DNA of 64,000 nucleotides, taken from contig JAAONU010000009.1 in the NCBI GenBank assembly GCA_012932295.1, forward strand, positions 4,638,203-4,702,202, written 5' to 3'. The stretch comes from Cyclina sinensis (lineage: Eukaryota > Mollusca > Bivalvia > Venerida > Veneridae). The notes below the pieces were generated by a model. It saw only the letters and a program-made list of their open reading frames with translations. It had not been told where the DNA came from and made no database searches. The position numbers and the translations under genes were made by a program. Numbering within the stretch: position 1 is the first letter of the stretch; each line of letters starts with the position of its first letter. This document shows positions 6,629-51,954 of the stretch, piece after piece.

Positions 6629-6893
6629 ATGCAGCTATCACGGACTGGACTGTCCCGTCAATAAATGGATCTGCCGACGGTAGTGGAGTAATTTTTGTCA
6701 GCGAAGACCAAACGACATGGTTCATATTTGATGATATTAACGCGGTGAGTGACACTGCAGCTGGGGCCACGCATTGCTGTTCATACACGTATGTTACTCA
6801 AGCGTACCCATTTAGTATTTTGACGGATGGTGGTGTTCAGGTGACGTCGACACTTGATTATGAGACAACTCAGAGCTACGTCGTTGTTGTGGA
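6629..6893 (+). CDS. Cadherin-like gene, exon A (first cadherin repeat)
   Basis: The acceptor TTGTATTAG precedes and the donor GTAAGTG follows. The 265-nt exon starts in phase 1 and ends in phase 2. It encodes the first part of a cadherin repeat, ending in the conserved LDYETTQSYVVVV strand. Confidence 0.8.
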
Positions 6894-16079: not shown

Positions 16080-16794
16080 TTTTTACCGATAAAAGTGTGT
16101 AAAACTTTATATTTTGATGTTTTTCTGTCACAAAAACTGAGTCAATAACTTAGTTTAAATATGTTCTTCACGATTACAGCAAGAATTTCAAGATGTATAA
16201 ACATTTTCTTTTTATCATCGTCTGTGAGTCAGTCGCTTTAATTATTGTTATATAAGGATTTCTGTAGTGCAGAACGCCCTGATTAACACAGTCCATCTTC
16301 TCATGTACATTTTCTTGATCTATTCTTTATAAGCATTTCCAAAGTGCAGGACGCCGTCATCTACATAGTCCATCTACTCCTCGAGTACTATTTCTTGATT
16401 TCTTGTTAAATTAGCATTTCCATAGTGCAGGACGTCGTGATCTACATAGTCCATCTACTCCCTTTGTTTTTTTCTTGATCTATTGTTTATAAGCATTTTC
16501 GTAGTGCTGAAACCCGTGATTTACAAAGTCCGTCTACTACCCCCTGTACTTTTTCTGATTAGCTTTTCCTTGTTGCAGGACCACTTGATCTACATAGTCC
16601 ATCTACTCCTCATGTACTTTTATTTGATTTATTTTCTAATAAGCATTTCTTTAGTGCAGGACGCTGTGATCTACATGGTCTATCTACTTCATTTGTTTTT
16701 TTTAATTTGTAGTTTTATAAGCATTTCCGTAGTGCCGGAGTCCGTGATCTACATAAGCCATCTACTCTCCATGTTCTTTTTCTTGATCTATAGT

Positions 16795-17400
16795 TAGGAT
16801 GCCGTGATCTACATCGTTCATCTACTCCTAATGTACTCTGTCTTCCTCTATTCTTTTATATGCTTTCCGTAGTGCAGGATGCCGTGATCTACATCGTTCA
16901 TCTACTCCTAATGTACTCTGTCTTCCTCTATTCTTTTAAATGCTTTCCGTAGTGCAGGTTTCCGTGATCTACATTGTGCATCTACTCCCCATGTAATTTT
17001 TCTTGATATATAGTTTTATAAGCATTTCCGTAGTGTAGGATGCCGTGATCTACATCGTTCATCTACTCCTAATGTACTGTGTCTTCCTCTATTCTTTTAT
17101 ATGCTTTCCGTAGTGCAGGATGCCGTGATCTACATCGTTCATCTACTCCTAATGTACTCTGTCTTCCTCTATTCTTTTAAATGCTTTCCGTAGTGCAGGT
17201 TTCCGTGATCTACATTGTGCATCTACTCCCCATGTAATTTTTTTTGATATATAGTTTTATAAGCATTTCCGTAGTGTAGGATGCCGTGATCTACATCGTT
17301 CATCTACTCCTAATGTACTCTGTCTTCCTCTATTCTTTTATATGCTTTCCGTAGTGCAGGATGCCGTGATCTACATAGTGCATCTACTCCCCATGTAATT
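16795..17400. repeat. Higher-order repeat of the satellite, 241-bp period
   Basis: Three diverged about 80-bp monomers (types containing ATCGTTCATCTACTCCTAAT, the AGGTTTCCGTGATC variant, and GATATATAGTTTTATAAGC) repeat as a block: 16861 onward matches 17102 onward almost base for base, offset 241. A third partial block follows from about 17342. Block identity exceeds monomer identity, the signature of a higher-order repeat. Confidence 0.85.
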
Positions 17401-18344
17401 TTTCTTGATATATAGTTTTATAAGCATTTCCGTAGTGCAGGACGACTTGATCTACAAAGTCCATCTACTCATCCTGTCCTTTTTTTATCTATTGTTTTAT
17501 AAGCATTTGCATAATGCTGAACCCCGTGATTTACATAGTCAATCTACTCGCTATTTATATTTTCTGACCTATTTTTTAATAAGCATGTCTGTGCTGCTGA
17601 AACCCTTATCTATAAAATTCATGTACTGCCTTTGTACATTTTCTTGATTAATTAATTTATAAGTTGGTCTCCATTAGCTACTCCCTTCCTACTTTTTTCT
17701 TGATTAATTGATATATAAGCATTTCTGTAGTGCTGAAAGCCATGATCTACCTAGTCCATCTACTCCGCATGTACTTTCTCTTGATTTATTAGGATGCCTT
17801 GATCTACATCGTTCATGTACTCTTAATGTCCTCTGTCTTCCTCTATTCTTTAATATGCTTTCCGTAGTGCAGGATGCCGTGATCTACATAGTGCATCTGC
17901 TTCCCATGTAATTTTTCTTGATATATAGTTTTATAAGCATTTCCGTAGCGCAGGACGCCGTGTTCTACATTGTCCATCTACCCCCTATGCATTTTATCTT
18001 GATTTATTGATTTATAAGCATTCGTAGTCCAGAGCTCCATGACCTTCAAAGTGCCTTTGAACTTTTGTACGAGTCCAACCAATAACCTTTAAGCATGCTT
18101 ACATATCATGTAAACTTTTGAAGTCCTGAGCTCAGTTTTCTGCAGTAATTATTCGGAAACGTGCAAGCTTATGTGACCATGGTTTTTGTACGTAAAATAC
18201 GTAAAATAATTTTCTTAAAGTTTTAACAACATTTATAAGTTATCTAGCGGACCTGCGATGTAATTGATGAAACAAATAAAAAAACAAACTGGTTGATTTT
18301 GCTTTGTATCTACTGCTTAATATGTCAAATCTACAAAAGCACAA

Positions 18345-36800: not shown

Positions 36801-39800
36801 TCTTCATATGGTCATCAGCTCCAATGTCAAAGCTTCACTGGGCCATTGTCATCTTTCATGATAAATATAAAATCTTACTGCCAAAACAAGTACAGGACAA
36901 AGTAACGTTGTTAATTTTAATGACTTTTTATGAACATGATGAATAGAGGTTCAGTTTAGTACACATGTGGAAAGCAACTTTAAGTGACAAAGAACATATC
37001 TCTTTACACAATTTGAATGGCTGTTTATGTGAATTCACGTAGTGATCCTTACATTTATAAAGCCTTGATTTGCAATTATGATTTTGGTTTAGGTTCTGAA
37101 CGTACATGGTGTGGCGAAGACTCTAATCCGGAAGGTATTTTTCTCTCAGCCATGGTAGAAGTAAACCCATTCAAGGGTGTTCCGTTCCTTGATGAATTCG
37201 TCATATCCCAAACAACCCGTTTGTATGCATTTGTAACAGCAGATACCAACGTCAACTCGAGGAAAGGCTATGCTGTATCTGTTAAAAATGATTTACTCGA
37301 GTTGAATACATTAATGAATAAAACTTTGACAGTCCTAGAAGATGCCATAAACGACATTGAAGTATCTTCCTCAGGGCCGTTAAAAGAAATATTAAAAGAC
37401 ATTTTTAAAAAAGCCACGACAATCAGGAGAAGTATACATGAAAACCTAGGAAATCTAGTATCCGGAAACTTAAAAGAAGACATGCGCTCTCTTGAAAATC
37501 TTCGTCAAAATTTCTATCAGCTTAGGTCAGACATTCACTTGTTTGCTGACAAAGCAGAATTTATTGCTGACGAAACAATACAAAGTTTAACAGATGTATT
37601 ACAGAATTATACTGCTTCTGCCAAAAACCATATACAAAATGTTTTTGATGAAATTGTACAGACAGCTATTTCATCTGCAGGGAATTACACAGGTTTTGGT
37701 TTGAAATTTTCGGCAGATTTTACAATCCTTGGATTGAAACTACTATGGCTTGATGTGGAGATTGTTTATTCAGAAGGATCTTTGTTAAGGTGCAGTAAAT
37801 TTGATGAAATCCGAGAGATTTTTAAAGGAGAAAGAGCACTTAGATTTATTGGTAGAATATCCACTGAACAGCGGTTAAGTAAATTTCTTGCAGTCGGAAA
37901 GGGATTTGGAATCGGAGGAGTATTTGCCAAGGATACAGACAAATGGGCCGTACAGCTTGAAGTGTTTACAAGTATGCTAGGTATAAAAGCAACAGCGGAT
38001 CTCTTTATAAAACTAAATGGAATTTATCTATATTTAGAAGGGAATGTCTGGGGTATTTTTCTTGCTGAAATAAAAGTTACAGCAGAGGCAGGCAAAGAAT
38101 GGTATCAGCTTATTTTTAATTTACGCGGTCGATTAGTAGCAAAAGCAAAGACAAAACGACAGGCAGAAGTTACGTCTACAGTGCAGAAAGGATATTTTGA
38201 TAAATTACATAGTGGAAGAATAAGGCGACAGGTTCAGACTGTAAGTTCATCCTTTCAAGATAGTTACCTAGATGCCCTTATATCAGCAATAAACATGATA
38301 TCAGAAGAAGCACAGAAGCGATTGTCTCAAGCTCAGTCTGCACTGACAGCAGCCCAGAGAGGTTTGACAAAAGCACAGAACTGGTTGGATGAAAAGCAAG
38401 TGGCTGTAAGGGCAGCTAATGTCCATTTCGATAACGCCGTCAAAAGTTTTGATGTTGCAAAACAAAAACTCGAGGAAGCAAAAGGACCTCTGGTAGCTGC
38501 CCTTAAACAATTAAAAGATGCTCAAAGAGATGTCGACAATCTTTGCAGAATTCGAACATGTTCCAGAATTTGTATACCTGGAATAAAATGCAGAATCTGT
38601 TATAAACGAGTATGGTTTTTAAAAATACCATACCCTTGTTGTCAGTTTACTAGCTGTATGATCAGTTTTCAAAACCCATTGTGTGTACTAGCAAACTTGG
38701 CTTGCAGAATCATAAGAGCAGCCGCCTATGTAATTTTAGAGATTGCAAAAATTTTTGTGAGGACTGCAATGCTTGCTTTTGATGTTGCAAAGGCGGCTGT
38801 GACTGTCGCTCAATTCGTCGTAGACAAATCCCGTGTTGTATTAACTGTTGCTGAAGGAATATTGGAAATAGCAAAGATTGGCCTTGGAGTAGCTAAAGGC
38901 ATATTAGAAGCAGCAAAAATTGCATTGGAAGTCATTAAACAAGTGATAGGTGCTGCGGCTAAAGTACTGGAATTTGTTATTGAGTACGGTTTGAAACATA
39001 TTATTGATGTGCGAAATTGTGGGTTTGACATTCAACTATCAACAAAAGATTTGCCTGTTTTTGAAGTATTTTGTGAAGTGAATGCATTTAAACTAGGCTG
39101 GACAAATATCAATCTTAAAATCAATTTTAAAAACGTATAACAGAGTGTTTGGCAAGCTGCCAAGGCTACAATCAAAGCCATTATCGATACATTTGGCAGC
39201 ATTTTTGACCACAGAAAGCGCAGAGACATTGAGTTTGATGCATCTTCACAAATCCATGTTTTGCTCCGTAAGATTCGTGAAGCACATGGAAATAACTCGG
39301 ATGAATTATACTTTAATGAAACCATCGACATTGCTAACGATATTGCAGGATTTCGTAATTCCAGTAGTAGTGATTCAGAAAATAGAATTGAACTTTTCCG
39401 TGAAAAATGTAGCAGGATCACACTTATCCAAGACTTCATGCAGTACGCTTTCGAGTCCTTACAGGATGTTGTTAACGAATCAACAGCTTATATTAGGGAA
39501 ATAAAAAATGTTAAGCAACAGTTACAGGAATATGGTGACATAGGATCAAGTACAAATATTACGGCAGAGAGTGTTGGAATAAGCAAGGAATATGCCGCAA
39601 ATGATTACAATATGACGGATGAAGATGTAGATAAGGCAATAAATAAGACAAAGGCGGCAGCTGCAGACGATCCATTGCTTGTTGAGATACGTTCTGCGGC
39701 AGTTTTGTCAGAAGAAAACGTCAACGCAGAAGCTAAATCAGTAGAATCGATAGACTTCCTGAACGCATGGTTTACAGCAATGAAAATATAACACGAGATT

Positions 39801-42800
39801 ATTTTGATGAATCTGAATGTGAGGATTTTAGAGACTGCATCTTTTATTCTATAACCCGCTTTTATGAACTGTATGAGTATGAAAATCTTCCAAATATCAC
39901 AAATATCAGATAATCTATTCTTGACCTTGAATACAAATTAATAGAGACTTTTCAGAATGAATCAACATCAATTTTAGACACGGCAGCGACTATGGAATTT
40001 GTCCTTAACCGCGTTAACAACCTTGTTGAAATGAACTTGTTTTGTACGCAACCACCGGAATTTTTGGCACCATTGCAGAACCAGACTGTCGTTTATGGCA
40101 CTGATGCGCAATTCAAATGTCCTGTGAAAAGCAATTCAGAAACAACTGTTACATGGTTGTCAAATGACACCGTAATAACTGGAGAAACTTTGGCTACTTT
40201 GACTATAACAAACGTTACCAACGAAGATACCTTTGACAAATACTACTGTATCGCAGGAAATGTGGTTGCAAACATAACTTCAAATGACGCTTTCCTAAGT
40301 GTTGTACAAGAAGGTATGTTTGTCTGTTTACAGATACTTTATCTTATTCATTTGTTGAATGTGAATGTCTCGTTTCAAGATATTCAAATAGAAAGAAGTA
40401 ATAACAATAGTAAATTATTGTATTGTTATTTAAATATCATTATTATTATCATCTCTTATGCACGGACTGCTGTTGTTGTTGATCGGGTTTCCCATTTATT
40501 GTCATAGAAATTGTGTTGTGATTGTTTCAAGGGACAGGATGCGAAGGCAGTCTGATATATATATATATATAGAATTAACACCATTTTCTTTTGATTATTT
40601 CAAAGATCAATAGTAATTTGTTGTTTATTTAAGATATTTCCAGTCACTAAAGTAAGATATACTTTTCATTCTAGTCATATGTAACTGAGTTGGAACACTC
40701 ATTAATGGCATATATAACTGCTTATTAGAATGCCTCTTGCGAGATATCTGACATCCAAATATTTTTTATATGACAAGATATTAAGTATTATATATATATA
40801 TATATATATTTTTTTTTTTTTAAAAACTTTTAACACTGATCTTCAAACATAAGATACAAATGAGTGCCAGACTTTGAACGGAGGTTGCCAGAAAATATGC
40901 CACAATTTCAAAGGATCATTTATCTGCCTGTGCCCACCTAGGAGCGTACTTATGAAAGACAGCACTTCCTGCCGAGGTATGTTTCACACACAATCTCGGT
41001 TGTAGGTTAAAGTTTAGTAAAGACCGAGGCTCGTCAAAAATAAATCAAAGTATAATCAAGGGTTTCCTTGTTCATCTGGTAATAATGATCGTTATATACA
41101 AATTGAGTAACGATGTAAATGACATTTACAATGATATAGGCTTATTTAGAGGTTATTTAACATTGTTCTTTATAATACGGATATATATTTATATGAGTGA
41201 ATACCAAGAAAATCGGATTTGCCATTCACGTAGTAAATAGTGATATATTTTTTATTAATTTATTATCTATATCAATTAATGACATGCCTTTGTTCATGGC
41301 AATAGTGCATTGCCATTTTATCATAATTTGTTGGGGTTTCCTTAAACATGACCTTTGAATCTCCTCAGTAGGTTGAAACAAGAAAAATGTTCATTTTCGA
41401 AATACTTAAAGGCATTGATGAAACAGTCTGTATATTTTTTTATGAAAAGGCAAATTTTCTCAAAATAAGTTTTTAGGACATGCATTTCATAGCTTGATTT
41501 ATGATACTATTTTCTTACGTTGCATAGATGTCAGAGAAAATTCTGTTTCGTCGTCATTTAGACTCGATGTTGAGGCAGATACATCAGATCGAGCGCTTTT
41601 CATGGCAATAATCAAAATGGTAAATATCCATATACGAATTTTACAACATTCATCTGTCGGTTTGTATTTCACATATTTAATGAAGTACAGTTTGATCAAT
41701 CTTGCATACGTTTATGTTTTTTCGAACACTTTTTAACCTTACTATTAGACCAATAATTTATTTGACCGAAAAGGAGGAATGAATATTTACAATTATTCAG
41801 TTGACCATAAACCGTTAGCTGCGCAAGAAAAATTAACCTGAAAACTTTTGTGGTGCTCATGATTGATACCTTTGATTTCTGTCAAAAATGCTGTTTTTTT
41901 ACATGTAATACAACTAATGTTATTTACGGATATGATGGTCTATTATAGACAATAACGCTTAAATGAAGTAGTGGCTAAACTGAATTTTCTAACAGAAAAT
42001 AAGAAGTTAAAATTATATGGCACAACTCAAGTAACAAATCCTGCATAGTTGTCACGCGATTCCCACCAACCCTAATGACTTTTTAAAGACGTTTGTTGTT
42101 TCATCGTCTTGTTTCCGGTTTATACTTTAACAGAAAACACATAGTAATTACCCTTTTCTACTGTTTATATAATAGATAAGGAAAAGGAAAAAACTTTATA
42201 ATTTGCCTTTTTATGTCAAAAAACGATGTTTCTTTCTAGTTACAAAATCACTTCATGACAGTGACTGGCAAGTCAATCTCTGTGTCCATCAACAACCTGA
42301 GGTTTGTATAAATAATAATTAATTCAAAGACAAGTATTTTTCATCAACTGGAAAAAGCCCTTTTAAGATTTATGACTTAACATTGTACTGTTTCTAAAAG
42401 TTCTGACAAGTACTTATATTAGAGAATAAATGAGAAACAGAAAATTATCAGTCAAACTCGGTTGACGGTTTTTAAATGGGCGATCTCGAGGTGTAATAAA
42501 AAGTTTTAACTGTCACCTTTATTTTTTGACTGTATAGGGAGGTTATGGTTTCTGACATTTAGAAACACAGTAGTTTTGTCTGTGCTGTGTGGTGGCCGTT
42601 AAACGTTTCTTTGAACTTTCAAGCAGTACTGTTATATTGTCTTCCCTCAGCAATTGCATTTTACATCAACTTTTCACACCCCTCCCTACTCACTCATACT
42701 TTTTGACTGTGTAGAGAGGCTGTGTTTCCTGAAAGTGCCTTTTCCTGATATGCGCTTTTCACACTTTACAAAATTAAAGTCTCTTGATTGCCTTGGTTCG

Positions 42801-45800
42801 GTTTATTGGGGGTTTAACGCCAGTTTTAACAGCTGTGGTCATATCCCGGCGGTCAGTCCACCTAACCAGTGTTCCTGAATATCCAACCAGTTTACAAAAC
42901 AATTTCTCCGCAAGTGACTGACTACTTCCTCACTTGCTTCAAACAAAATACATTTCTTGAATATATGCATATATGCATTTTCATATATATCTTATAGTTT
43001 ATAAAGTATCAACCTGAACCGTTAGGTTTAAATGAAAGAATATAGATTTTCTTTCAAATTCTACATACTGAAATTCAGAGAATGATTTTGTAAGTATATT
43101 TTGTAGACGTGGAAGTGTTATCGCTGATTACACCGTGGTATATAAAGTCGAGGACAATGATCATAGCACGGCCGATGCTATTGTGAAAGCTATTATGGAT
43201 TTGGAGGAGGCTACAACATTCATGCTAAATGGAAAACCGGTGCAAGGTTATTCCGGTATTGACAGGTTTTATTCATCTTTTTTTACTGGTGAACTAGTTC
43301 TTTGTTTGGATTCACAGTGCACAAACGTCCATCTGGACAAATATAAAAGCAATGTAAGGAGTACTTCTTTTAAAATGATTGCCTGCTTTGGCTTTTTGAG
43401 TAGGATTTAAACCTAGATTAACTACCTCGAAAAAAAAGACACTCAGAATTCACAGATGAAAATGTAACGTTAACATTATCCGTAACGTGTTTTAGAACTT
43501 TAGTAATACTTTGTTTTTCAGATTCTTCTTTTGATACTTAGTAACCAAAGAGTGATTAACATAAAATTGCTTGTTTGTCTCATTCTATTCGAAGTGTCAT
43601 TGCAATACTTCTAATCGTGTTCGTGTTAATATGTTTTTAATTTCGAGCGGACTATACCATACATAAGTCACTTTTGTATGTTATTTGTTCAGTTTTACCA
43701 GCAAGCTCTTCAGAACCATGTAAGATCCGTCAACTTCTTGCTGGTGAATGTTCAGAAGGCTGGAAATGCACAGTTGAAATCGGCAAACCCTACTGCATGT
43801 ATGTAAAGCGTTATTTAATATAGTAATCTTTCAAACATTTGAATTAGATATGTCAGTTTATATTCTAGTTTATTGGTGAAACGATGAATGATGCATGATA
43901 TATCAATTCCTTTTCTAAGCATAAAGTATTTTATTTTCTTCAATATCAGTGTCGGCGAGATGAAGCAGAGACATATATAAGCATTACTATTCCTTTCAGA
44001 TATTGAGAAATGGAATACTATTACAACCAACTTTTAACTTTGACGTTAGTTCTACATATTCTTAGTTGTTGGTTTCGTATTTTGGTGCGGCTTATAGAAA
44101 GAAAAAAGTAACATGTTGTATCTTTATAGAAATTTTAGCTTTTTTACTGTAAACGTAAGTAAACCAACTGGTTTCCTATCTGCATCTGTACCTTCTAGTA
44201 ACTAGTTACCTTTTGTCGTTTCAGAAAAAAACCGGATGCATCTACAAGCAGTAAGACCACTTAATCATGATATGAAAAGGTCATATTCAAAATCAAACAA
44301 TTGACGTTAATTAGTACAATTAGCCTTTCATATATCTTTACAGCTGTGATCTATCTTTTTTTAAGATATAGTTTTTTAAGACTAACTGTAGATGCATACA
44401 TATATATGTAAAAATGTGTTGGCCAAGTAATTTAAATGTGAAAAAATAAAAGGATCAAATAGATGTTTGAATGTATAATTGCTAACCGGTTTCTTTTATC
44501 ATCAGGCCAAAAAATTGTGCTAAACCTTTAGCAGTCCACTTGTTTTGTCAATATGAAACAGTTTCAAAGATTAAATGTATTTGTTTTTTTTCTTTTAGGT
44601 ACCAACGTCATGATTATCATTGTGATAGTTGTTGGATGTGTTCTTGTTGTCGGCTTGACGGTTCTGTCCGTTTTTACCGTATATGTTCGCTGTTTCAGGA
44701 ACAAACACAGGTTTTTACGTAGAATTGCTAGAAAAAACAGGCAACATTTTCTGTATAATACCATGGTCTTTGCTTAATCCAACATTCTTTTAAGGCCTAA
44801 ATTCACTTACAAAGAAAAAGTATAGTAAAATAACAGGAGTTGTAGTTTAGGTAGTACAACCATGCTTGTAATGATAGTTCCCATTTTTTAAATAGCTAAA
44901 TACAACCTCAAAATTTGAAGGACACACCAATGGTTTCACTGGTTTGGTGTTATAAAAACTAAAAGCAAAAAAGTTAGTTTGCAGTGGTAAAAAGTTATGG
45001 TAAAATACATTCATATTATATTAAACATTTTCATGTCTTTAAGGCTCAGTTTCCGACCCTGGAAGGTATTATGAAAGAAAGGTAATCAATTTGATATTCT
45101 AAAATATATCTATATTATTATATTGTTGCATTAAACCGATATCATCTTTTACTTTTCCCACGCTTAGTTTTATACAAATAAGTGGCCAAGTTAAATTTTT
45201 GACGATTGCAAATACGAGTGCATACCATTACAAACACAAATGTTTTTGGATGGGGGATCGGATGCCTCTGCAATCACGCAGTCCGGTGTCTGTAACACCC
45301 TATGGCAATGACAAAGGAAATGATCAGAATAAAATGATGGACAAGTCTCTATATTTAAAAAAATAAAAAAGTGTTAGGGTTAATATTACCTAGTATATTA
45401 TTGTACAGGTTTGATGATATCAATCTATTTATAGTCATAGTCATATATAACTATTTGTTAAAGAAAAGACCTATGTTCATGGAGAAGATTAATTCTATGC
45501 GATATATTACAGGTCATAATGAAATGCCAGTATTACTAACGAATCAAGAAACCTCTCCAGAATGTCAAGAGCACCATTCCACCAGCATGATAGAAAGTTC
45601 CCGTAAGTTTTGTGGATGATTAGTTTTCGTGCTTATCATTTTCTTTTTTTATTTACTTGTTCATTTTGTATTTACAATATGTTTGCTCTGGCATTCAACA
45701 CTGTCTGGTTGACAGGTTGGTTGGAATTAATTCACCAGGACAACTTGTACATGTCTGTTCTTGTTAAAACTTGTTGGGGCAAGTGTGAGGTTGGTGCACC

Positions 45801-48800
45801 CTTGAAGCTGGTTTTAACCCCAGTGGCAAATGTTTTGCAAGGCGGTAATCCAGTAGGTTCTCAATTTCTTTAATCTGTTTGTGGTGTCTTTTTAACAAAT
45901 GTTTTATTGATCACTCATTTATATACCCCATTAAAGAATGCATTTTCACTGATATTCTGTTTTATTTAAAATGAAGAAGTCTGGATATTATCTTTTACCA
46001 GGATTGGTCATTTGGATATGCTCGTATACACTTTTAACATTCCCTTTACTTTGGGATCAGTGATTCAGCACGTACATGCTTAGTTGTAGTGCCTTAAATA
46101 CATAAACCAGAAGAGCGCAAGCTATGTCAACATTACATAGGCCATGACGTCACATAAAACTCAACGTCGCTTTTCATGCAATGTAATCCTACAACAAACA
46201 AAACAAAATTATAATAAAATTTTAAAGTTGTCTTCTCAGTCTTCTAAAATTTATCTAAAATAAAATCTTTTAAACTATGCAGCTGTTAATTTTCCAAGAT
46301 AACTTGTACTTGATTGTTCTAATGAGACCTGTCGGGGCAAGTGTCAGGTTGGTGCACCCTAGAACCTGGTTTGAACCCTCCAGTGGCAAAAGTTTTGCCA
46401 TTGATCGTTCTGAGGCGAGGTAACCCCACGAGTTCTCATTTTCTTTGATTGTTTGTTTTGTCTCTTTTTAACTTATCACTTTTAAAATATGTTATTTTTT
46501 TCTCTACCTTTATACTGTGTAGGAAGGCTGTGTTCCCTGACTGTTGTTTATCCTATGCTTTTTTACCTTTTTTTAAATACACCGTCTTCGTTGACTCCAA
46601 AAACAATGTGCAGAATGTGTTGAAATAAGCGACAAATGCACAGCTTAGTAATAGCAAATAAAATTAAACTCAACTGGAAAGAAAATACTTATGAATGCTG
46701 GACCATGTAGGGTACTCGTTGGCGGTAACCCCACGAGTTCTCATTTTCGTTGATTGTTTGTGGCGTCTCTTTTTAAAGAGATCACTTTAAATATCTGTGC
46801 TGTTTGTTCCTCTTCTTTTAACTGTGTAGGGAGGCTGTGCTTTTGACTGCGTTTTTTATATGCGTTTTTTTGTTTTACTTGTTTTGAATACGCCGTCTTC
46901 GTTGACTCTAAAAACAATGTATAAAATGTGTTGAAATAAAGTGACAAATACACAGCTTAGTTATGGCAACTAGAATTCAACTCAACGAATAAGTATATAA
47001 CCATGAATATTCGACCATTTAGCGTACTGTTTGGAAAACAATATCAGTTTCAAATGATATCACATTTCAAAGAACAAACAGCAGGAAAAGTCTCATAGAA
47101 CAAGATGATTGGGCAGACACAATCATTTCTAAACACATAATGTTTCTACTCTTCTGTAATATAGTTGTGTCGCTTTAAAGCTCAAGCAGAGCCGATAATA
47201 AAAAATAAGGTTAACAATTATAACTTTTTGTAAAGGGAAAGAGGTTGCTTGAACAAACATGCATTCTGGTACTTTTTATGGCAGTGACAAGTGAATGATC
47301 AGAATTTTATGATAAACAGGTCTATTTCAGAAATTAAAAAGTGTAAAAGTTATAATTCCTGCAGGCGTTATGGTATAAAGCCATTTGTATCGAACAAAGT
47401 TGTTTATGTTGAAGAAAGACTTAGATTCATGGAGAACTTTAATTCTATGCGATATATTACAGGTCATGATGAAATGCCTGTATTGACGAAACAAGAACCT
47501 TCTCCTGAATGTCAAGAGCACCACTCCACGAGCATGATCGAAAGTTCCTGTAAGTTCTTTTCGATAATCCCTTTTCATACTTCTAATTTGTTTTCTGTTG
47601 TTTTTAATTCACTTGTTCATTAAATATTTTTAATATATTTGCTCTTCAAATATGGTGTCATTGATGAATCCAAAATTAATGTGTAAAATGTGTTGAAATA
47701 AAGTGTCAAATACAAAGCTACCTTAAGACAATTAGAATCAGACTCAACCGCTAAGCAATTACTTACAAAAACTCGACCAAGCAGAGTACTTTTTACAGTT
47801 AATACCAATATCAAATGATTTAGTTTTTTAAAGCATGTAATGTCTCATTAAACGAGATGAATGGGCCAGCACATTCATTTATTGGTACTAGATATTTCAC
47901 AGTTCTGTTATTCTGTGATATAATTGTATGGCTTTGAAAATAACAGCAGAGTCGAGTGTGAAACAATGTTTACAATTACATTTTTGCGGAAGGTGTGCAT
48001 GGGAGAGAAGACGAGAGGGACAGCTTAACAAATATGTCTGATCGTTAATGTGAAGATAACAAAGAGAACGTGAACCTTTAATGAAAGATGTCTTTTTTGA
48101 AAAAAAATCAAAGGGTTAATATTTTTGTAAACAGGTTTAATGATATTAAGCTTTATGTAGTCATATAAAGCCCTAATGGGATATGTTACAGGTCATAATG
48201 AAATGCCTGTAATACTGACGAAACAAGAACCTTATTCTGAATGTCAAGAACACCATTCCGCCAGTATGATCGAAAGTTCCTGTAAGTTTTGTCGATAATC
48301 CCTTTTCTTTCTTCTTATTTTTTAATTGACTTGTTCATTTTACATTTGTGATACTCGCATTTAAAATACAGTGTCTTTGTTGACTAAAAAACCCCGAAAA
48401 AAACATTGTGTAAAGATGTGTTGAAAAAATGTGAAACACATAGCTAACACATAACAAAGTAGAATCATACCCAACTTGTAAGCATATGCTTACAAATACT
48501 CGCGCAAGCACTGTTTGGGGAAAAAAGTAATTACATAATCAAATGATATCAAATTTCAAAGAACTGACAGAAAATATCTTATGAAACAAGATGATTGCGA
48601 CAGCACATTCATTTTAGGGCACTAACTATTTAACATATCTATAATTCTGTGATAACATTGTGTTACTTTGAAGTTCATAGCAGAGCCGAGTACAAAAATA
48701 AGGTAAACATTTTTTTTTCGTTTAGATAGGGGTGGTGAGAGGAGGTTTCTTGCATAACATGCAGTCTGATACTCCCTATATAATGACAAAGGAAATGATC

Positions 48801-49982
48801 AGATTTTGATAATGGACAAATCTATTTTATAAATCAAATAGTATAAGTGTTAATATTCACTATACTACTGTGTACAGTTCTAATAACAGAAGGCCGTTTG
48901 TAGTTATACAAAGCTATTTGTGTTGAAGAAAATACTTAGATTCGTAGTGAAGATAAATTGTTTGCGATACATTACAGGTCATGATGGAGTGCCAGTATTG
49001 TTGACGAAACAAGAACCTTCTTCTGAATGTCAAGAGGACAATTTCGCAAGCATGATAGAAAGTTCCTGTTAGTTTTATGGATAATTTTCTTTTCGTACTT
49101 ATAAATATCACTTTTCCCTTATTTGTTCATTTACCAATTAAAATATTTGCACCACATATTTGCACTTCAAGTACACCATTTTTGTTTACTCCGAAAACAA
49201 TGTGTAAAATGTGTTGAATCATGGGAAATAGAATCAAATGAAACTGGTAAGCATATAATTACAAATGCTTGACCACGTATAGTCCAGTTTGGAAAACAAG
49301 TGATATAAGTATCAAATAATTTGACATTTAAAGGGATACACAGGCAAATAAATGTCCCAAAAATTAAAACTGATATTATTTGCTCAAATCACGTTCAATA
49401 TGAAGAACTTCCAGTACGTTTGTAGTGAAATGCGGGCTTGAACGTAAATATTTGAACGCTTTTTTAACAGAAAGTAAAACATGAACGAAATCACCGAGTT
49501 ATTTACAAATAGGTCACATGACAAAAACAACCAATCGTCGTTTCTCTTGGGTTGCTTTTTGACGTAGATCACGTGACAGTTACTTCAACCGTCCAATCAT
49601 TCACTGCGGAATTTAGCGCGAAATCTAAACTTTCTATCTAGACCCACGTGGGTCAAGTAAGGAAACCACCCGGTTTTTCATTTAAAAGAGGAAATCTTTG
49701 TTACTGGGACAGATGATTGCATTTATTTGGATCACATTTATAGTATATTGATTGAAGAAATGAGGAAGAAAGCAAAACGTTTGCCTGTATATCCCTTTAA
49801 AGAACAAACTGGAAATGTCTCTTAGAACAGGATGATTTGGCCAGAACATTCATTTCTTGGCGGTAACTATTCCGCAGATACATTATTCTATGATATCATT
49901 CTGATGTTTCGAAATTTTCAGCACAGTCGACAGTTAAATTAGATGAATAATAATAAAATGTCTGGTTTTTTTTTCAGGTTAA
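18828..49982 (+). CDS. Large modular EGF/Ig/SEA transmembrane protein gene (whole model)
   Basis: About 26 exons were joined by AG/GT borders with compatible phases. Order: signal peptide; EMI-like Cys-rich module; EGF; eight calcium-type EGFs; an unrecognised domain over three exons (34235-36422); a giant exon (36960-40313) with coiled coil, Cys cluster, hydrophobic helices and Ig domain; EGF; SEA; Cys-rich stalk; transmembrane helix; cytoplasmic tail; stop. Coding length is about 6.7 kb (about 2,235 residues). It is expected at the cell surface as an adhesion or receptor-type protein; the SEA domain may self-cleave at GSVI. No named orthologue is recognised. The giant exon has two apparent frameshifts and two in-frame TAA codons, so the gene may be a pseudogene, a null allele or an assembly with errors. 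Possible polyadenylation hexamers are ATTAAA at 50173 and AATAAA at 51469. Confidence 0.75.
18866..20311. other. Intron 1 of EGF/SEA gene
   Basis: No further exon was recognised. The frames at 19083-19436 and 19935-20312 are incidental; the latter reads through the intron into exon 2 without a break. Confidence 0.6.
20312..20428 (+). CDS. EGF/SEA gene exon 2: Cys-rich EMI-like module, first half
   Basis: After the acceptor CTATCTTCAG (phase 2) the exon encodes [20 protein letters not shown] then [13 protein letters not shown] and ends in phase 2 before GTAAGA. Continuing into exon 3 it gives CRRYRTVGYTC. The pattern of paired Cys and aromatic residues before a CC-x-GY-x-G-x-x-C ending resembles an EMI domain, the usual N-terminal module before EGF arrays. 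EMI assignment is by pattern only. Confidence 0.72.
20941..21020 (+). CDS. EGF/SEA gene exon 3: EMI-like module, second half
   Basis: The acceptor ATCATTTCAG and the donor GTGAGA flank an 80-nt exon (phase 2 to 1) encoding [20 protein letters not shown] then GNDCNT. The [10 protein letters not shown] ending matches the terminal motif of EMI domains. Confidence 0.75.
21317..21415 (+). CDS. EGF/SEA gene exon 4: EGF-like domain 1
   Basis: A phase 1-1 exon encoding [20 protein letters not shown] then [11 protein letters not shown]: six Cys in EGF spacing with the CQNGGTC core. It lacks the DxNEC calcium-binding start, so it is a short non-calcium EGF of the tenascin/MEGF type. Confidence 0.85.
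22045..23005. mobile_element. Interspersed repeat element, about 960 bp, in intron 4
   Basis: It begins at a GC-rich palindrome CCCGCGCAAGCGCGGG (22054-22069) in otherwise AT-rich DNA. It contains two copies of GACCTTGAGCCGGC-type sequence (about 22587 and 22798) and two of AAGTTTCATGAAATT, and ends with a CAGACGGACGCAC run and the G-rich palindrome CCGCTATGCGGCGGGGGATT near 22980-23000. The same kind of terminal module closes the repeats at 27985 and 28600. No protein-coding frame seen. Confidence 0.6.
23812..23934 (+). CDS. EGF/SEA gene exon 5: calcium-binding EGF 2
   Basis: A 123-nt phase 1-1 exon after TTATCTTCAG. It begins [16 protein letters not shown], continues [20 protein letters not shown] and closes with a Cys. 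The DxNEC start and the C-x-N-x4-F-x-C beta-hydroxylation motif are both present. Confidence 0.92.
24160..24286. mobile_element. Short palindromic MITE-like element
   Basis: TCCAGATTAGCAAAA (24166-24180) and its exact inverted copy TTTTGCTAATCTGGA (24264-24278) enclose about 83 bp, with partial similarity extending outward. A second small foldback follows at once (24301-24404). Confidence 0.55.
24301..24404. repeat. Short foldback with 10-bp perfect inverted ends
   Basis: AACACCGAGT and ACTCGGTGTT are perfect inverted copies about 104 bp apart, in an intron of the EGF/SEA gene. Too short to assign to a transposon family. Confidence 0.5.
25139..25261 (+). CDS. EGF/SEA gene exon 6: calcium-binding EGF 3
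   Basis: A phase 1-1 exon encoding [20 protein letters not shown] then [20 protein letters not shown]. Calcium-binding start and C-x-N-x4-Y-x-C motif present. Flanked by AACTTCAG and GTAATA. Confidence 0.93.
25520..25771 (+). repeat. Tandem duplication, copy 1 (252 bp)
   Basis: Nearly identical to 25772-26025. It carries the end of an intron, its acceptor and the first 55 bases of an EGF exon. The two copies differ by several substitutions and one CA-repeat length change. The junction shares ATAC with the original left flank, suggesting microhomology-mediated duplication. Confidence 0.93.
25717..25775 (+). pseudogene. Truncated duplicate EGF exon ending in TGA
   Basis: After an intact acceptor (TGATTTTCAG) the frame reads [19 protein letters not shown] and then hits TGA at 25773-25775, where the duplication junction returns to intron sequence. 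Only the first half of the EGF domain remains and no donor follows at the EGF exon end. It differs from the functional copy at 25971 by Gly-to-Cys and Gln-to-Leu changes. If spliced in, it would truncate the protein. Confidence 0.85.
25772..26025 (+). repeat. Tandem duplication, copy 2 (254 bp)
   Basis: The second copy of the 252-bp unit. It ends inside the intact EGF exon at 25971-26093. Confidence 0.93.
25971..26093 (+). CDS. EGF/SEA gene exon 7: calcium-binding EGF 4
   Basis: A phase 1-1, 123-nt exon encoding [20 protein letters not shown] then [20 protein letters not shown]. Full six-Cys EGF with calcium and hydroxylation motifs. Its first half and acceptor are duplicated upstream. Confidence 0.92.
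26451..26573 (+). CDS. EGF/SEA gene exon 8: calcium-binding EGF 5
   Basis: A phase 1-1 exon encoding [20 protein letters not shown] then [25 protein letters not shown] start and C-x-N-x4-Y-x-C motif present. Confidence 0.93.
26574..27639. other. Intron 8, first part
   Basis: No exon or RNA gene recognised. Intron 8 is about 4.5 kb and holds the repeats listed below. Confidence 0.5.
27640..28612. repeat. Tandem repeat, about 150-bp unit, 5 copies, with CGGACGG/G-rich terminal modules
   Basis: Units share GATAAAGGGGAATAACTCTA, ACTGCACTACCTACCAATGT, GCTCTGTCAGTGTATGAAGT and TTTTGGAGTTATGCTCCGGA. Two units end in a CGGACGGAC run plus TTTCTAATATCCCCTCCGCC and TTTGGCGGGGGGATAA, a palindromic tail. 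This looks like a short interspersed element partly expanded in tandem. It gives spurious open frames. Confidence 0.85.
28890..29200. repeat. Dispersed repeat family D, copy 1
   Basis: Contains GGAGTTAATTCACCAAGACA, GGGGCAAGTGTGAGGTTGGT, GGCGGTAACCCATCGGGTTC and ATTGACTGTGTAGAAAGGCT. Matching segments occur in the same order at 45695-45900 and 46280-46560, and partly at 42525-42760 and 46715-46870. No coding frame. Confidence 0.7.
29201..31065. other. Intron 8, last part
   Basis: No exon recognised. A duplicated TTGACGCAAACCAGTCAA-type segment occurs at about 29331 and 29360. GTTGCCATGGTAAT at 30887-30900 resembles an RFX X-box half-palindrome, about 165 bp before exon 9. Confidence 0.45.
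31066..31185 (+). CDS. EGF/SEA gene exon 9: calcium-binding EGF 6
   Basis: A phase 1-1 exon (120 nt) encoding [20 protein letters not shown] then [19 protein letters not shown]. Calcium and hydroxylation motifs present. Flanked by TTTTTTCAG and GTATCC. Confidence 0.92.
31400..31522 (+). CDS. EGF/SEA gene exon 10: calcium-binding EGF 7
   Basis: A phase 1-1 exon encoding [20 protein letters not shown] then [20 protein letters not shown]. Acceptor TTAATTTAG, donor GTTAGT. Confidence 0.92.
32089..32202 (+). CDS. EGF/SEA gene exon 11: Notch-type EGF 8
   Basis: A phase 1-1 exon (114 nt) encoding [20 protein letters not shown] then [16 protein letters not shown]. The shorter loops, CQNGGTC core and GFTG-x-x-C ending are of the Notch/Delta class, unlike the fibrillin-like neighbours. 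Confidence 0.93.
32490..33305. repeat. Minisatellite, 51-bp unit, about 16 copies
   Basis: Copies of TTCATACTTCAGTTTGTTAA then AGTCCCTGTTCAAATTGATT and TAACTGATGTG fill most of the intron before exon 12. The last four or five copies are the most alike. The 51-bp period equals 17 codons and the unit lacks a stop in one frame, giving a 127-codon repetitive frame at 32943-33326 that should not be called a protein. Confidence 0.93.
33554..33679 (+). CDS. EGF/SEA gene exon 12: calcium-binding EGF 9
   Basis: A phase 1-1 exon (126 nt) encoding [20 protein letters not shown] then [20 protein letters not shown]. It is the last EGF before the unrecognised domain. Confidence 0.92.
33884..34188. mobile_element. 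305-bp foldback element with 6-bp target duplication
   Basis: Both ends read TACGGAATACCGTTAGG inward from opposite strands, and inverted similarity continues for about 60 bp (one G/A difference near the ends). The element is flanked by GTTAGT on both sides (33878-33883 and 34189-34194). The centre is a series of GCGATAATGCGATGGCGACA-type units on one side and their inverted equivalents on the other, so nearly the whole element folds on itself. No coding frame. It lies 46 bp before exon 13. Confidence 0.85.
34235..35108 (+). CDS. EGF/SEA gene exon 13: unrecognised extracellular domain, part 1
   Basis: An 874-nt exon (phase 1 to 2) follows GTTATGTTACAG; its frame opens [20 protein letters not shown] and runs without a stop to the donor GTAAGT. 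The product is beta-rich in appearance, with spaced Cys, N-glycosylation sites (NFS, NST) and a C-terminal segment [21 protein letters not shown] do not recognise the family. Its intact frame contrasts with the broken giant exon downstream. The internal ATG at 34243 is not the gene start. Confidence 0.85.
35109..35752. other. Intron 13
   Basis: AT-rich. The open frame at 35113-35349 has no splice context and is taken as incidental. Confidence 0.5.
35753..35918 (+). CDS. EGF/SEA gene exon 14: unrecognised domain, part 2
   Basis: A phase 2 to 0 exon (166 nt) between TTTCTATATAG and GTATGT. It reads [20 protein letters not shown] then [20 protein letters not shown], ending QCVTQ. It joins exon 13 in frame and carries one N-glycosylation site (NKT). 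Confidence 0.78.
36269..36422 (+). CDS. EGF/SEA gene exon 15: unrecognised domain, part 3
   Basis: After TATTTTTAG the frame reads [20 protein letters not shown] then [20 protein letters not shown] and ends at the donor GTAAAC in phase 1. It joins exon 14 in phase 0. Confidence 0.75.
36440..36950. mobile_element. Interspersed repeat filling intron 15
   Basis: Starts with TGTCCCCGAAGAAGGGCATA and a GTCCGTCTGTCAGTCCGTCC run, then GACCTTGA-rich sequence (TATGACCTTGATTGATCTTG, ACATGACCTTGATATTGAGG). The style is that of the dispersed elements at 22.0 and 27.6 kb. It occupies nearly the whole intron and may have been inserted close to the acceptor of the giant exon. Confidence 0.5.
36960..40313 (+). 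pseudogene. EGF/SEA gene giant exon 16: coiled coil, Cys cluster, helices, Ig; with frameshifts and stops
   Basis: The acceptor GTTCAGTTTAG leads to [16 protein letters not shown], then the frame shifts by one near 37013-37016 into a 2.1-kb frame ([15 protein letters not shown]...). That frame holds N-glycosylation sites, furin-like sites (KTKRQ at 38148-38162; RIRRQ at 38217-38231), a coiled coil (about 38240-38540), a 10-Cys cluster ([16 protein letters not shown]...; 38544-38706) and long hydrophobic helices (38700-39010). TAA at 39138-39140 interrupts; the same frame resumes with [20 protein letters not shown] and RKRRD to 39785. A second shift near 39779-39791 leads into [15 protein letters not shown], then TAA at 39911-39913, then the Ig domain (40040-40310: FKCPVKSN...VTWLSND...YYCIAGN). 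The donor is GTATGT. Four lesions in 3.35 kb suggest decay or assembly errors. The domain before the Ig is not recognised. Confidence 0.78.
40314..40853. other. Intron 16 with two TA microsatellites
   Basis: (TA)n runs at about 40556-40571 and 40790-40809, the latter followed by a T-run. Nothing else recognised. Confidence 0.6.
40854..40976 (+). CDS. EGF/SEA gene exon 17: calcium-binding EGF 10
   Basis: A phase 1-1 exon encoding [20 protein letters not shown] then [20 protein letters not shown]. Same class as EGFs 2-9, now after the Ig domain. The hydroxylation motif C-x-N-x4-F-x-C is kept. Confidence 0.9.
41528..41619 (+). CDS. EGF/SEA gene exon 18: SEA domain, part 1
   Basis: A 92-nt exon (phase 1 to 0) after CGTTGCATAG encoding [20 protein letters not shown] then [11 protein letters not shown]. 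It forms the first strand and helix of a SEA fold when joined to the next exons. Confidence 0.75.
42240..42301 (+). CDS. EGF/SEA gene exon 19: SEA domain, part 2
   Basis: A 62-nt exon (phase 0 to 2) between TTTCTTTCTAG and GTTTGT, encoding [20 protein letters not shown]. Joins both neighbours in frame. Confidence 0.72.
42525..42760. repeat. Dispersed repeat family D, partial copy
   Basis: TTTGACTGTATAGGGAGGTT and TTTGACTGTGTAGAGAGGCT, followed by TTTCCTGAAAGTGCC, match the right end of the family D repeats at 28.9, 46.3 and 46.8 kb. Confidence 0.5.
43107..43246 (+). CDS. EGF/SEA gene exon 20: SEA domain core with GSVI site
   Basis: After TTTTGTAG the frame (phase 2) reads [20 protein letters not shown] then a helix with [24 protein letters not shown]-x-D-Y is the SEA-domain strand; in mucin-type SEA domains the Gly-Ser bond self-cleaves. 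The donor used is GTTATT in phase 1. An alternative donor GTAAGG at 43354 would extend the exon but breaks the phase with exon 21. Confidence 0.72.
43693..43798 (+). CDS. EGF/SEA gene exon 21: Cys-rich juxtamembrane module
   Basis: A phase 1 to 2 exon (106 nt) encoding [20 protein letters not shown] then [14 protein letters not shown]. Four Cys in an EGF-remnant pattern lie between the SEA domain and the membrane. Confidence 0.7.
44225..44250 (+). CDS. EGF/SEA gene exon 22: 26-nt micro-exon
   Basis: A very short exon (phase 2 to 1) between GTCGTTTCAG and GTAAGA encoding KKPDASTSS. It links the Cys-rich module to the transmembrane exon with exact phase agreement on both sides. Confidence 0.68.
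44599..44710 (+). CDS. EGF/SEA gene exon 23: transmembrane helix
   Basis: After TTTCTTTTAG the frame reads [20 protein letters not shown] then [16 protein letters not shown]: a 25-residue hydrophobic helix followed by basic stop-transfer residues. The donor assumed is GTTTTT after CACAG (phase 2), which matches the phase of the tail exons. If that donor is skipped, the frame continues through [20 protein letters not shown] to TAA at 44775-44777, giving a shorter basic tail. Confidence 0.78.
45044..45079 (+). other. Possible small cytoplasmic exon, uncertain
   Basis: Between TGTCTTTAAG and GTAATC a 36-nt stretch could encode [12 protein letters not shown]. It needs phase 1 at its start, which the transmembrane exon does not supply. 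Left unassigned. Confidence 0.25.
45409..45602 (+). CDS. Cytoplasmic-tail exon, copy 1 (intact)
   Basis: After TATTGTACAG the 194-nt exon (phase 2 in, phase 1 out) reads [20 protein letters not shown] then [20 protein letters not shown] and [15 protein letters not shown] before GTAAGT. Its first half is more hydrophobic than copy 2. It joins exon 23 in frame and, through phase 1, the terminal exon at 49978. Confidence 0.6.
45695..45900. repeat. Dispersed repeat family D, copy 2
   Basis: GGAATTAATTCACCAGGACA, TTGGGGCAAGTGTGAGGTTG, AAGGCGGTAATCCAGTAGGT and TTGTGGTGTCTTTTTAAC match copy 1 (28.9 kb) in the same order. It lies between tail-exon copies 1 and 2. Confidence 0.7.
46280..46560. repeat. 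Dispersed repeat family D, copy 3
   Basis: AAGATAACTTGTACTTGATT, TCGGGGCAAGTGTCAGGTTG, GAGGTAACCCCACGAGTTCT and TACTGTGTAGGAAGGCTGTG match family D. A partial fourth copy follows at 46715-46870 (GGCGGTAACCCCACGAGTTC ... TAGGGAGGCTGTGC). Confidence 0.7.
47365..47549 (+). CDS. Cytoplasmic-tail exon, copy 2 (intact)
   Basis: After AATTCCTGCAG the 185-nt exon (phase 2 in, phase 1 out) reads [20 protein letters not shown] then [20 protein letters not shown] and [15 protein letters not shown] before GTAAGT. Joined to exon 23 it gives [15 protein letters not shown], a hydrophilic tail expected on the cytosolic face. It is the best candidate for the main isoform. Joined to 49978 it ends ...ESSC and TAA. 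Confidence 0.65.
48135..48281 (+). pseudogene. Cytoplasmic-tail exon, copy 3 (deleted, frame-broken)
   Basis: The acceptor TTGTAAACAG and the donor GTAAGT are kept, but the middle is deleted (147 nt, not frame-compatible). Reading from the acceptor gives [11 protein letters not shown] and then TAA. The 3' half still encodes [20 protein letters not shown] and SASMIESS in another frame. Confidence 0.7.
48878..49067 (+). pseudogene. Cytoplasmic-tail exon, copy 4 (frame-broken)
   Basis: The acceptor TGTGTACAG is kept, the donor has changed to GTTAGT, and the length (190 nt) does not preserve the frame. The phase-2 frame meets TGA after about 16 codons. The 3' half encodes [20 protein letters not shown] and FASMIESS in the shifted frame and, if the donor is ignored, ends at once in TAG. 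Confidence 0.68.
49978..49982 (+). CDS. EGF/SEA gene terminal exon: completes one codon, then TAA
   Basis: TTTTTTTTCAG precedes GTTAAG. With the phase-1 ends of the tail exons, GT completes CGT (copy 1) or TGT (copies 2-4) and the next codon is TAA. The strong polypyrimidine acceptor and exact phase fit support it, although only two coding bases plus the stop are involved. Confidence 0.5.
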
Positions 49983-51954
49983 GATCTTTGACTCTTCAAA
50001 CTTGCAGTAGAAATCAGCAAGATATTACTTTAGTTTATTGAACATTAACAATGCATCTTTTAAGACATGAATTTTAGTTGTTAAAAAGTTGTTTACTTGC
50101 AAGAAAATATTTTTGTAATCAGATGTGATCATAAGTGATGTATGGTTTACTATTTTATATTTATATTTTTTTATTAAATATTTATATTTATGTTTTGTTA
50201 GTTAACCAGGTACTGTTTATATTAATCATAGGTAGGTTTGCTTGAGAGTTAAACATGCTTTGTAGACCAAGTCATAGAGGTAAAAGGACTTCCGCAAGGA
50301 AAGCTTGGTCACCTGCTATTAGTATTTGATGTTATGCACGTGATAATGGCCAGTCAACAATCTTTTTTTCAAATTGTGCATATTGTCTTTGCAACCATTC
50401 GAGAACTTTTCATTGCATTTATTATGGATTTAAATTTGTTGAGGCTGAACGGGTGACTATTGTATTTCATCCAAAACTTCCATTGGCAGGCTCTAACAGA
50501 TCTTTCATCGTAAAGATATGGATATTTATCAATTATCTTAAAAGAAAAATGTTTCAGTTATAGATGTGGTAGTGTTAAAGACACTATAATAAGAGAGGAA
50601 TGACATTTTTTAAAAAGATAAATACTTTTGTAGATGTAGATAACATTTTTCCAATCAGTCTCGGTTGAATTATCGGGGCTCTAAGCAGCTATGCAAGCGA
50701 TCGACAACCAGTTGCCGGTGAAAAGCCACCTTTTATCTAGTTAGTAAGTTGCAATGAACCAAACATAATGTTGTTTGCCACAGAATGATGCAAAGAACCA
50801 AACACAATGTAGGTTGCCACAGATGATGCAAAGAATCAAACACAATAATAAATGCCACAGAATGAAGCAAAGAACTAAGAACCAATCAAAATGTTTGTTG
50901 CCACAGAATAGTGCAAAGACCCAAAGACAATGCTGGTTGCTAAAGAATTATTGCAAGTCGCCGAAAAAAGGTACCTGTCATAAATGATTGCTAGTTACAA
51001 CGAGTCTTTTATCTAGAGAATATTGTTTGTACAGATTGCTGCAGTTGAAAACACCATTTGCCATTCAATCAGTTTGAAGCTTTTAAAAATATTGCAGTCA
51101 CACTCAATTCACTGATTACCACTTTTAAGCTAATATTAGTCGCCTCGAAGTTGATTAAAGTCCCATTGTCCAAGTGACATTTGGCTTTGACTTGTCGTTT
51201 GTTGTAAAATTTTAAACAGAATATTACGATGTGCTTTATTGTTACATGATTCATATTTACCAATTGTGTGTAAGAATGTTTTATTTTTCTCTGCTTCTAC
51301 TGTAAAGACATTATATTAACCAGAATAGTACTTGGATCATAATTTGATGTCTACCGAATACGTTTTATCAGTGTACATTTATTCATGTTTGACTGTTTTC
51401 ACAAATCTATTGCATGACATAACTTTTCTGTGCTCACTATATTCTTATTCTTATTTATATGTTTTTAAAATAAAGTCTAACAGAGCAATTGTCACAGTCT
51501 TACATCTTTCAATTATTTCTCTGCCCAATCCCATATCGCGTGCATTTGTTTTATGTTTTAGATAAGATTTTAGTGAGTATTAAATATGTCGGTCTGCATT
51601 TTTCATTATCACATTTTCATAACAAATTCTTTTTTTCTTTTGTAAACCAAAACGCCGCCGGTTATTCTATTTACGATAAACAAATTTTGCAGTCAATTGA
51701 GAAATTTCCCATATATGAATGATTAAACTTCAAAGCTTATTTTCCCATAATTGTACATTTTACAGTAATGTTAATTGCAAGTACTTCTGGGTAACTGTCT
51801 ACATGTTTAAGCGCTATACGAGTGTTGTTTATAGTTTAAATTAAAGTAGACTTGGCTAATATAAAATTTGTATATTATAAAACCATTAATCTAATCGAAA
51901 CATTTTTGTCATCTTAACGTCCGGTTTTGTGAAAATTGTGACATGATAACTTAG
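49983..51954. other. Probable 3'UTR and intergenic
   Basis: Candidate polyadenylation hexamers are ATTAAA at 50173-50178 and AATAAA at 51469-51474. A short minisatellite lies at 50749-50955. No coding exon recognised. Confidence 0.45.
50749..50955. repeat. Minisatellite, about 40-bp unit, 5 copies
   Basis: Units of the type GCAAAGAACCAAACACAATG then TAGGTTGCCACAGAATGAT. Copies diverge by indels. The open frame over it (50775-50987) is a by-product. Confidence 0.85.

What the first reader, a model, noticed from the sequence alone, without database searches (positions are those of the whole stretch)
45409..49982. Tandem array of four cytoplasmic-tail exons whose phases force mutually exclusive use
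Four copies of one exon (45409, 47365, 48135, 48878) keep their acceptor and the motif YITGH-[DN]-E-MPV...ECQE...SMIESS. Each exon enters in phase 2 and leaves in phase 1, so two copies cannot be spliced together in frame, yet each can join the transmembrane exon (phase 2) and a shared terminal exon where the next codon is TAA. Copies 1 and 2 are open; copies 3 and 4 are broken. Copies 1 and 2 also differ in the membrane-proximal half (hydrophobic versus polar). This suggests an alternative-tail system, or one caught while decaying, that would change receptor signalling without changing the ectodomain.
Basis: partly seen in the sequence, partly recalled or inferred. Interest (0 to 1): 0.78.

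Follow-up and report, generated by a model that had tools for sequence, protein, structure and literature searches.

The report
Repeated tail exons in decaying gene
A clam-like genome carries a run of four copies of a short exon that probably codes for the inner tail of a large cell-surface protein, but the copies look smaller than first thought, nothing in their reading frame forces the cell to use only one, and this particular gene copy is damaged.

Summary
The four copies are real, but the exon limits were drawn too wide, and the phase argument falls with them. The genome holds three tandem paralogues: A (window, four copies), B (four), C (one). Such exons can be joined, skipped or chosen. 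A missed mini-exon (45044-45081) links the phase-2 membrane exon to them. On this model copies 3 and 4 are intact. Gene A itself is broken: two nonsense codons, a one-base deletion, a stop in the mini-exon; the compared exons of B and C are open. The hydrophobic/polar contrast of copies 1 and 2 comes from reading aligned DNA in different frames. No RNA was available, so actual use stays open. An AATAAA block after 5 of 8 copies is the interesting loose end. Kind: tandem array of symmetric exons.

The parts
44599..44710 (+). transmembrane exon, leaves in phase 2 at a GTTTTT donor (44711); a GC site at 44741 is also phase 2
45409..45512 (+). outer part of copy 1, most likely intron end, not coding
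45513..45602 (+). core exon, copy 1, 90 nt, phase 1-1
47463..47549 (+). core exon, copy 2, 87 nt, phase 1-1
48192..48281 (+). core exon, copy 3, 90 nt, phase 1-1, open
48978..49067 (+). core exon, copy 4, 90 nt, phase 1-1, open; donor GTTAGT
47697..47702 (+). AATAAA after copy 2, aligned with AATAAA after B1, B2, B4 and C1; possible poly(A) signal
49978..50180 (+). shared terminal exon: acceptor TTTTTTTTTCAG, then GT TAA in phase 1; right end not known, 50180 is arbitrary
37093..40330 (+). large ectodomain exon of gene A, homologous to exons open over the 1079 codons compared in B and C; ends with an Ig domain; right end approximate
39138..39140 (+). nonsense codon TAA in gene A; B and C read TTA
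39783..39786 (+). one base fewer than B and C in an A run of gene A; shifts the frame
39911..39913 (+). second nonsense codon TAA in gene A, in the ancestral frame; B and C read GAA

Best explanation
The array consists of tandem copies of one short coding exon of 87-96 nt (about 30 residues), entered and left in phase 1, at the 3' end of a family of large single-pass membrane proteins with EGF and Ig domains. A 32/38-nt mini-exon converts the phase-2 membrane exon to phase 1. Copies can therefore be spliced in any number, giving tails with one or more units ending in about ..SMIESS, then a stop at the start of the shared last exon. Gene A in the window is a recent pseudogene; B (three usable copies) and C (one) look intact in what was compared. 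Shown: where coding constraint lies, the phases, the paralogues, the lesions. Inferred: that these junctions are used, that the units are cytoplasmic, and that copies are joined rather than chosen.
For: Core frame kept in 8 of 8 scored copies with three in-frame length differences (-3, -3, +6 nt) and no stop; best of 237 overlapping flank windows 4 of 8. Identity: core 0.807, outer part 0.710, downstream 0.697, upstream 0.643. Pooled pN 0.173, pS 0.355; differences by codon position 177/94/196, second-position deficit p = 0.006. Copy 3 has lost much of the outer part, yet its core differs from copies 1 and 2 with pN 0.08 and 0.06 against pS 0.43 and 0.33. The inner AG is present in 8 of 8 and scores 1.5 to 4.7; the outer AG is lost in B4 and scores -16.5 to 7.9. 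B and C read open from membrane exon through mini-exon and core copies to a stop in the last exon.
Against: Copies A1, A2 and B2 are open through the outer part in phase 2; random sequence of that make-up is open in about 4% of trials for 98-104 nt and 10% for 71 nt, so three of eight is more than naive chance, though copies are not independent. The outer acceptor scores above the inner one in A1 and C1. My donor matrix gives the donors of the core copies low scores (-10.5 to -1.1), although most read GTAAGT; the matrix rests on 18 donors, mostly of homologous EGF exons. The 50 nt before the core are also fairly conserved (0.765), so the left border is not proven. Third-position excess alone is marginal (p = 0.053; in B copies alone 0.31), and the shifted frame +1 also shows pS 0.290 above pN 0.173. 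The donor of the membrane exon is poor or odd in all three genes (A 2.4, B 0.3, C 7.7). No homologue of the tail unit was found.
Confidence: 0.66

Rival explanations
1. One reading: exons start at the outer acceptor, join the membrane exon directly in phase 2, leave in phase 1, and so can be used only one at a time.
For: In gene A, copies 1 and 2 are open and in phase this way, as is B2, which is more than naive chance.
Against: 5 of 8 scored copies fail, among them the only copy of gene C; the outer stretch shows intron-like identity and no kept frame. Gene A, where it works best, is broken.
Confidence: 0.1
2. Composite terminal exons (same core limits as the best explanation, other use): each copy can either be spliced onward or be the last exon, with a stop within a few codons of the donor and its own AATAAA about 125 nt on. 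Poly(A) choice would set the number and kind of tail units, much as membrane and secreted IgM are chosen (the IgM comparison is recalled).
For: AATAAA at +121 to +148 after 5 of 8 copies; the 20-nt window there has identity 0.824 (7 copies compared), like the end of the core (0.819), against 0.61-0.64 at 20-60 nt upstream and 0.68-0.71 after it; read-through stops within 6 codons in 6 of 8; the shared last exon has no poly(A) signal at an aligned place.
Against: The adjoining upstream window is 0.758; A3 and A4 have lost the hexamer and A1 has it only in a displaced block; the peak rests on fewer letters because of gaps. By my rough estimate, made without a call, keeping it in 5 or 6 copies at this divergence is only a little above expectation.
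Confidence: 0.18
3. The mini-exon is the last coding exon, as its likeness to the C-termini of two homologues suggests, and the copies downstream are relics or belong to rare transcripts.
For: C reads R-INPLKVFWKK; P0003 (Mercenaria) ends RLNPTKVGWTE and P0007 (unnamed source) ends HALPHRVAWSE.
Against: Only 2 of the 5 homologous C-termini aligned show this. Relics would hardly keep frame in 8 of 8 copies nor a GT donor; B and C run on for 24 and 8 codons past the mini-exon without a stop.
Confidence: 0.16

Closest known systems
Tandemly duplicated symmetric (phase 1-1) exons, as for EGF modules
   Same: Copies in one orientation with the same phase at both ends can be added or skipped without frame shift; EGF exons of these same genes are of that class (phase-1 donor found for 17 of 27 EGF exons listed).
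   Different: The unit is a short tail piece, probably without a fold (inferred), rather than an extracellular domain.
Mutually exclusive exon clusters (PMC5740500, passages seen)
   Same: Neighbouring homologous exons in one gene.
   Different: Three causes named there, frame shift, branch-point closeness and U2/U12 mismatch, do not apply. Competing RNA structures were not properly tested.
Uncharacterised EGF/Ig membrane proteins of Mercenaria and Ruditapes (P0001 LOC128548733, P0003 LOC128556350, P0012 'fibrillin-2-like')
   Same: Sequence identity 60%, 47% and 56% over 80%, 90% and 25% of the query.
   Different: None of the homologues held contains the pieces EC[QE]E, IESS or QEP[ST] of the tail unit; some end before or at the membrane, so this is weak.

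Membership tests
mutually exclusive exon cluster | homologous neighbouring exons of like length | tested here: met
mutually exclusive exon cluster | joint inclusion shifts the frame | tested here: not met
mutually exclusive exon cluster | donor and next branch point too close (under about 50 nt) | tested here: not met
   introns between core copies of A are 1860, 642 and 696 nt, by subtraction of the coordinates
mutually exclusive exon cluster | U2/U12 incompatibility | tested here: not met
   by eye only: donors GTAAGT, GTTAGT, GTAATT, GTGAGT with AG acceptors
mutually exclusive exon cluster | no reads joining two copies | not testable with these tools
   no RNA data held
symmetric phase 1-1 exon array | same phase at both ends in all copies | tested here: met
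   8 of 8 scored copies, of 9 known; B3 has lost its donor
symmetric phase 1-1 exon array | several copies present in one mRNA | not testable with these tools
   no RNA data held
composite terminal exon (splice or poly(A) choice) | in-frame stop and poly(A) signal downstream of a used donor | tested here: inconclusive
EGF/Ig single-pass membrane protein family | EGF_CA and Ig domains by profile | tested here: met
   EGF_CA 33.5 bits (cut-off 27), Ig_3 42.8 bits (cut-off 30)
EGF/Ig single-pass membrane protein family | SEA domain before the membrane | tested here: inconclusive
   GSVIADYTVVF looks SEA-like from memory; no Pfam match for the 62-residue piece

The most novel reading that the evidence does not exclude
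Each tail unit is a composite exon that is either spliced to the next unit or cut and polyadenylated, so that the cell sets the number of roughly 30-residue, E/S/P-rich tail units on one unchanged ectodomain by poly(A) choice, and paralogues differ in the length of that ladder (one, three or four units).
Probability: 0.13. Interest if true: 0.6.

Novelty: new member of a known kind. Interest (0 to 1): 0.3.

Why it matters
It corrects a tempting phase argument: taking intron into an exon can create a false rule of mutual exclusion. If the repeats are used in B and C, the cluster would be a natural series (one and three units, four in the broken gene) for testing what a repeated cytoplasmic unit does to a receptor. 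The gene in the window should not be used for that, being broken.

Tried and rejected
Homologues of the tail unit were sought with a long protein query scored over its whole length (7992 candidates scored of more), over the membrane-to-tail part (232 candidates, none at E <= 1) and with a short tail query (29 candidates, none at E <= 1); none showed the unit. Pfam gave no match for the 64-residue reader exon and one weak, sub-cut-off match for the membrane-plus-tail piece. A splice-site matrix from 36 acceptors and 18 donors of the same genes was made; its donor half rests mostly on homologous EGF exons, has leave-one-out outliers (down to -17.5) and scores the core donors low (-10.5 to -1.1), so I did not use it to reject donors, and this is a choice a reader may question. 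Inverted repeats were listed (11 pairs); none pairs one site with all four copies, but this is no real test of docking structures. A tree of nine copies is poorly resolved (supports 44-78), so the order of duplications is left open. The counts after the first stop include frame-shifted codons and were replaced. A tblastx listing was too noisy to use and was cut in display. Literature: five searches listed no paper on this array; the lists were capped (10 of 922, 10 of 29) and I saw titles and starts of abstracts; of PMC5740500 I saw passages only (12 of 18 places).

Full report
What is there. The window is C18:4638203-4702202 of a 903-Mb genome. The closest proteins are uncharacterised ones of the clams Mercenaria and Ruditapes (for example P0001, 60% identity over 80% of the query), so an animal near those bivalves is likely. 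A DNA search of the genome with copy 1 found eight places, all within 105 kb of that contig (a lower bound by the tool's own words). Fetching the flanks showed three tandem paralogues, A (window), B and C, each with EGF exons, a large exon, a membrane exon and tail copies. A has four copies; B four (outer starts 97263, 100982 and 105159, and a decayed one near 101755, window numbering); C one (150515). In B and C the large exon is open over the 1079 codons compared. Pfam finds EGF and Ig domains in the window's exons.

Exon limits. For eight copies (B3 left out because its donor GT is gone) I measured the stretch from the outer AG to an inner AG (TTACAG|GTCAT; TTATAG in B1) and from there to the donor. 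The first is 104, 98, 57, 100, 100, 71, 98 and 100 nt. Entered in phase 2 it leads openly into the motif in three copies (A1, A2, B2); a fourth, B4, has the right length but contains stops and has lost the outer AG. The second stretch is 90, 87, 90, 90, 90, 90, 87 and 96 nt, frame kept and open in all eight. With 87-nt windows slid along the alignment, the core has 8 of 8 copies open in one frame; 237 overlapping flank windows reach at most 4. Mean identity is 0.807 in the core, 0.710 in the outer part, 0.697 downstream and 0.643 upstream. Pooled pN is 0.173 and pS 0.355; the second codon position varies least (177/94/196; p = 0.006 for the second position, 0.053 for the third). Copies 1 to 3 of A have pN 0.04-0.08 against pS 0.33-0.51. 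Copy 3 lacks much of the outer part, and its core is still conserved.

Against this: three copies are open through the outer part in phase 2, where random sequence of that make-up would be so in about 4% of trials for 98-104 nt and 10% for 71 nt. The 50 nt before the core are also fairly conserved (0.765), with no clear codon pattern (95/70/85). The shifted-frame control is not clean: frame +1 gives pS 0.290 and pN 0.173 (frame +2: 0.139 and 0.216). In the B copies alone the codon-position pattern is weak (27/17/26, p = 0.31), and pairs such as B2-C1 and B4-C1 have dN/dS of 0.86-0.91. The acceptor matrix prefers the outer site in A1 and C1 and the inner one in the other six; the donor matrix scores the core donors low.

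The missing link. Between the membrane exon and the first copy lies a mini-exon that aligns in all three genes, with AG before it and GTAATC after it: 38 nt in A (45044-45081), 32 nt in B and C. It enters in phase 2, as the membrane exon leaves, and leaves in phase 1, as the core exon needs. Joined in a script, B (membrane, mini, three cores, last exon) and C (membrane, mini, core, last exon) read open to a stop at the start of the last exon. In A the mini-exon has TGA where B and C have TGG. Two of five aligned homologous C-termini end in a like sequence (P0003 RLNPTKVGWTE and P0007 HALPHRVAWSE, against C's R-INPLKVFWKK), so the mini-exon may be an old C-terminus of the family; the closest homologue, P0001, ends otherwise. 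The donor of the membrane exon is unsettled: GTTTTT in A and C, GTAAAA 30 nt farther in B (matrix scores 2.4, 7.7, 0.3), and C has a 17-nt insert beside it.

What follows for exclusivity. A phase 1-1 exon can be skipped, chosen or joined. The introns between the cores of A are 1860, 642 and 696 nt, and all their sites are GT-AG. PMC5740500 (passages) names splice-site incompatibility, branch-point closeness and frame shift as causes of mutually exclusive splicing, besides RNA structure and proteins; the first three do not apply here. Regulation by proteins or RNA structure is not excluded.

Gene A is broken. TAA at 39138 (TTA in B and C), one base fewer in an A run near 39783, a second TAA at 39911 (GAA in B and C), and the mini-exon TGA. 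Away from these, A still looks like a gene: dN/dS before the first stop is 0.36 against B and 0.35 against C (B against C 0.46), and the 213 codons between the first stop and the deletion are 97.8% identical to B. So the lesions look recent, or the stretch was copied between genes. The deletion lies in a homopolymer and could be a sequencing fault; that would not explain the three substitutions. I did not compare every exon upstream of 34177, and reads were not available.

A loose end. After 5 of 8 copies an AATAAA sits at +121 to +148. In an alignment of seven copies (A1 and B3 left out of the count) the 20-nt window there has identity 0.824, like the end of the core (0.819), against 0.61-0.64 at 20-60 nt upstream, 0.758 in the adjoining window and 0.68-0.71 just after. 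If the donor is not used, 6 of 8 copies stop within six codons. The shared last exon shows no poly(A) signal at an aligned place. This is what composite terminal exons would look like, but gaps reduce the data and retention of the hexamer is, by my rough estimate without a call, only modestly above expectation. The confidences of the best explanation and of this rival overlap, as both share the core limits.

Verdict. A real array, with coordinates and phases corrected; an ordinary kind (symmetric exon array) in a gene family that I found no paper on; mutual exclusion by phase not supported; the window's gene most likely a pseudogene. Use in B and C remains to be shown by RNA.

Noticed in passing
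window 49328-49800: Insertion of about 465 nt with 29-nt inverted ends (86% complementary) between copy 4 and the last exon; gene C aligns across the site without it. Looks like a small DNA transposon.
   Followed up: partly
window 45716-45887 and 46285-46469: Two related dispersed repeat pieces in the intron after copy 1, also at 73189-73381 upstream of gene B's EGF exons; they lengthen that intron, and the AATAAA block belonging to copy 1 seems displaced to about 46930.
   Followed up: partly
window 36861-40330: This stretch is 92% identical between A and B, while matched stretches farther 3' are 70-82%; suggests gene conversion between tandem paralogues.
   Followed up: no
window 6502-9108: Cadherin domain (8776-9108 above the Pfam cut-off; 6502-6897 only weak, below it) of what seems another gene upstream of the cluster.
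   Followed up: no
window 16243-17586: Tandem arrays with a unit of about 80 nt, up to about 10 copies.
   Followed up: no
window 25717: Partial second copy of the EGF exon at 25971, cut off by a stop after 19 codons.
   Followed up: no
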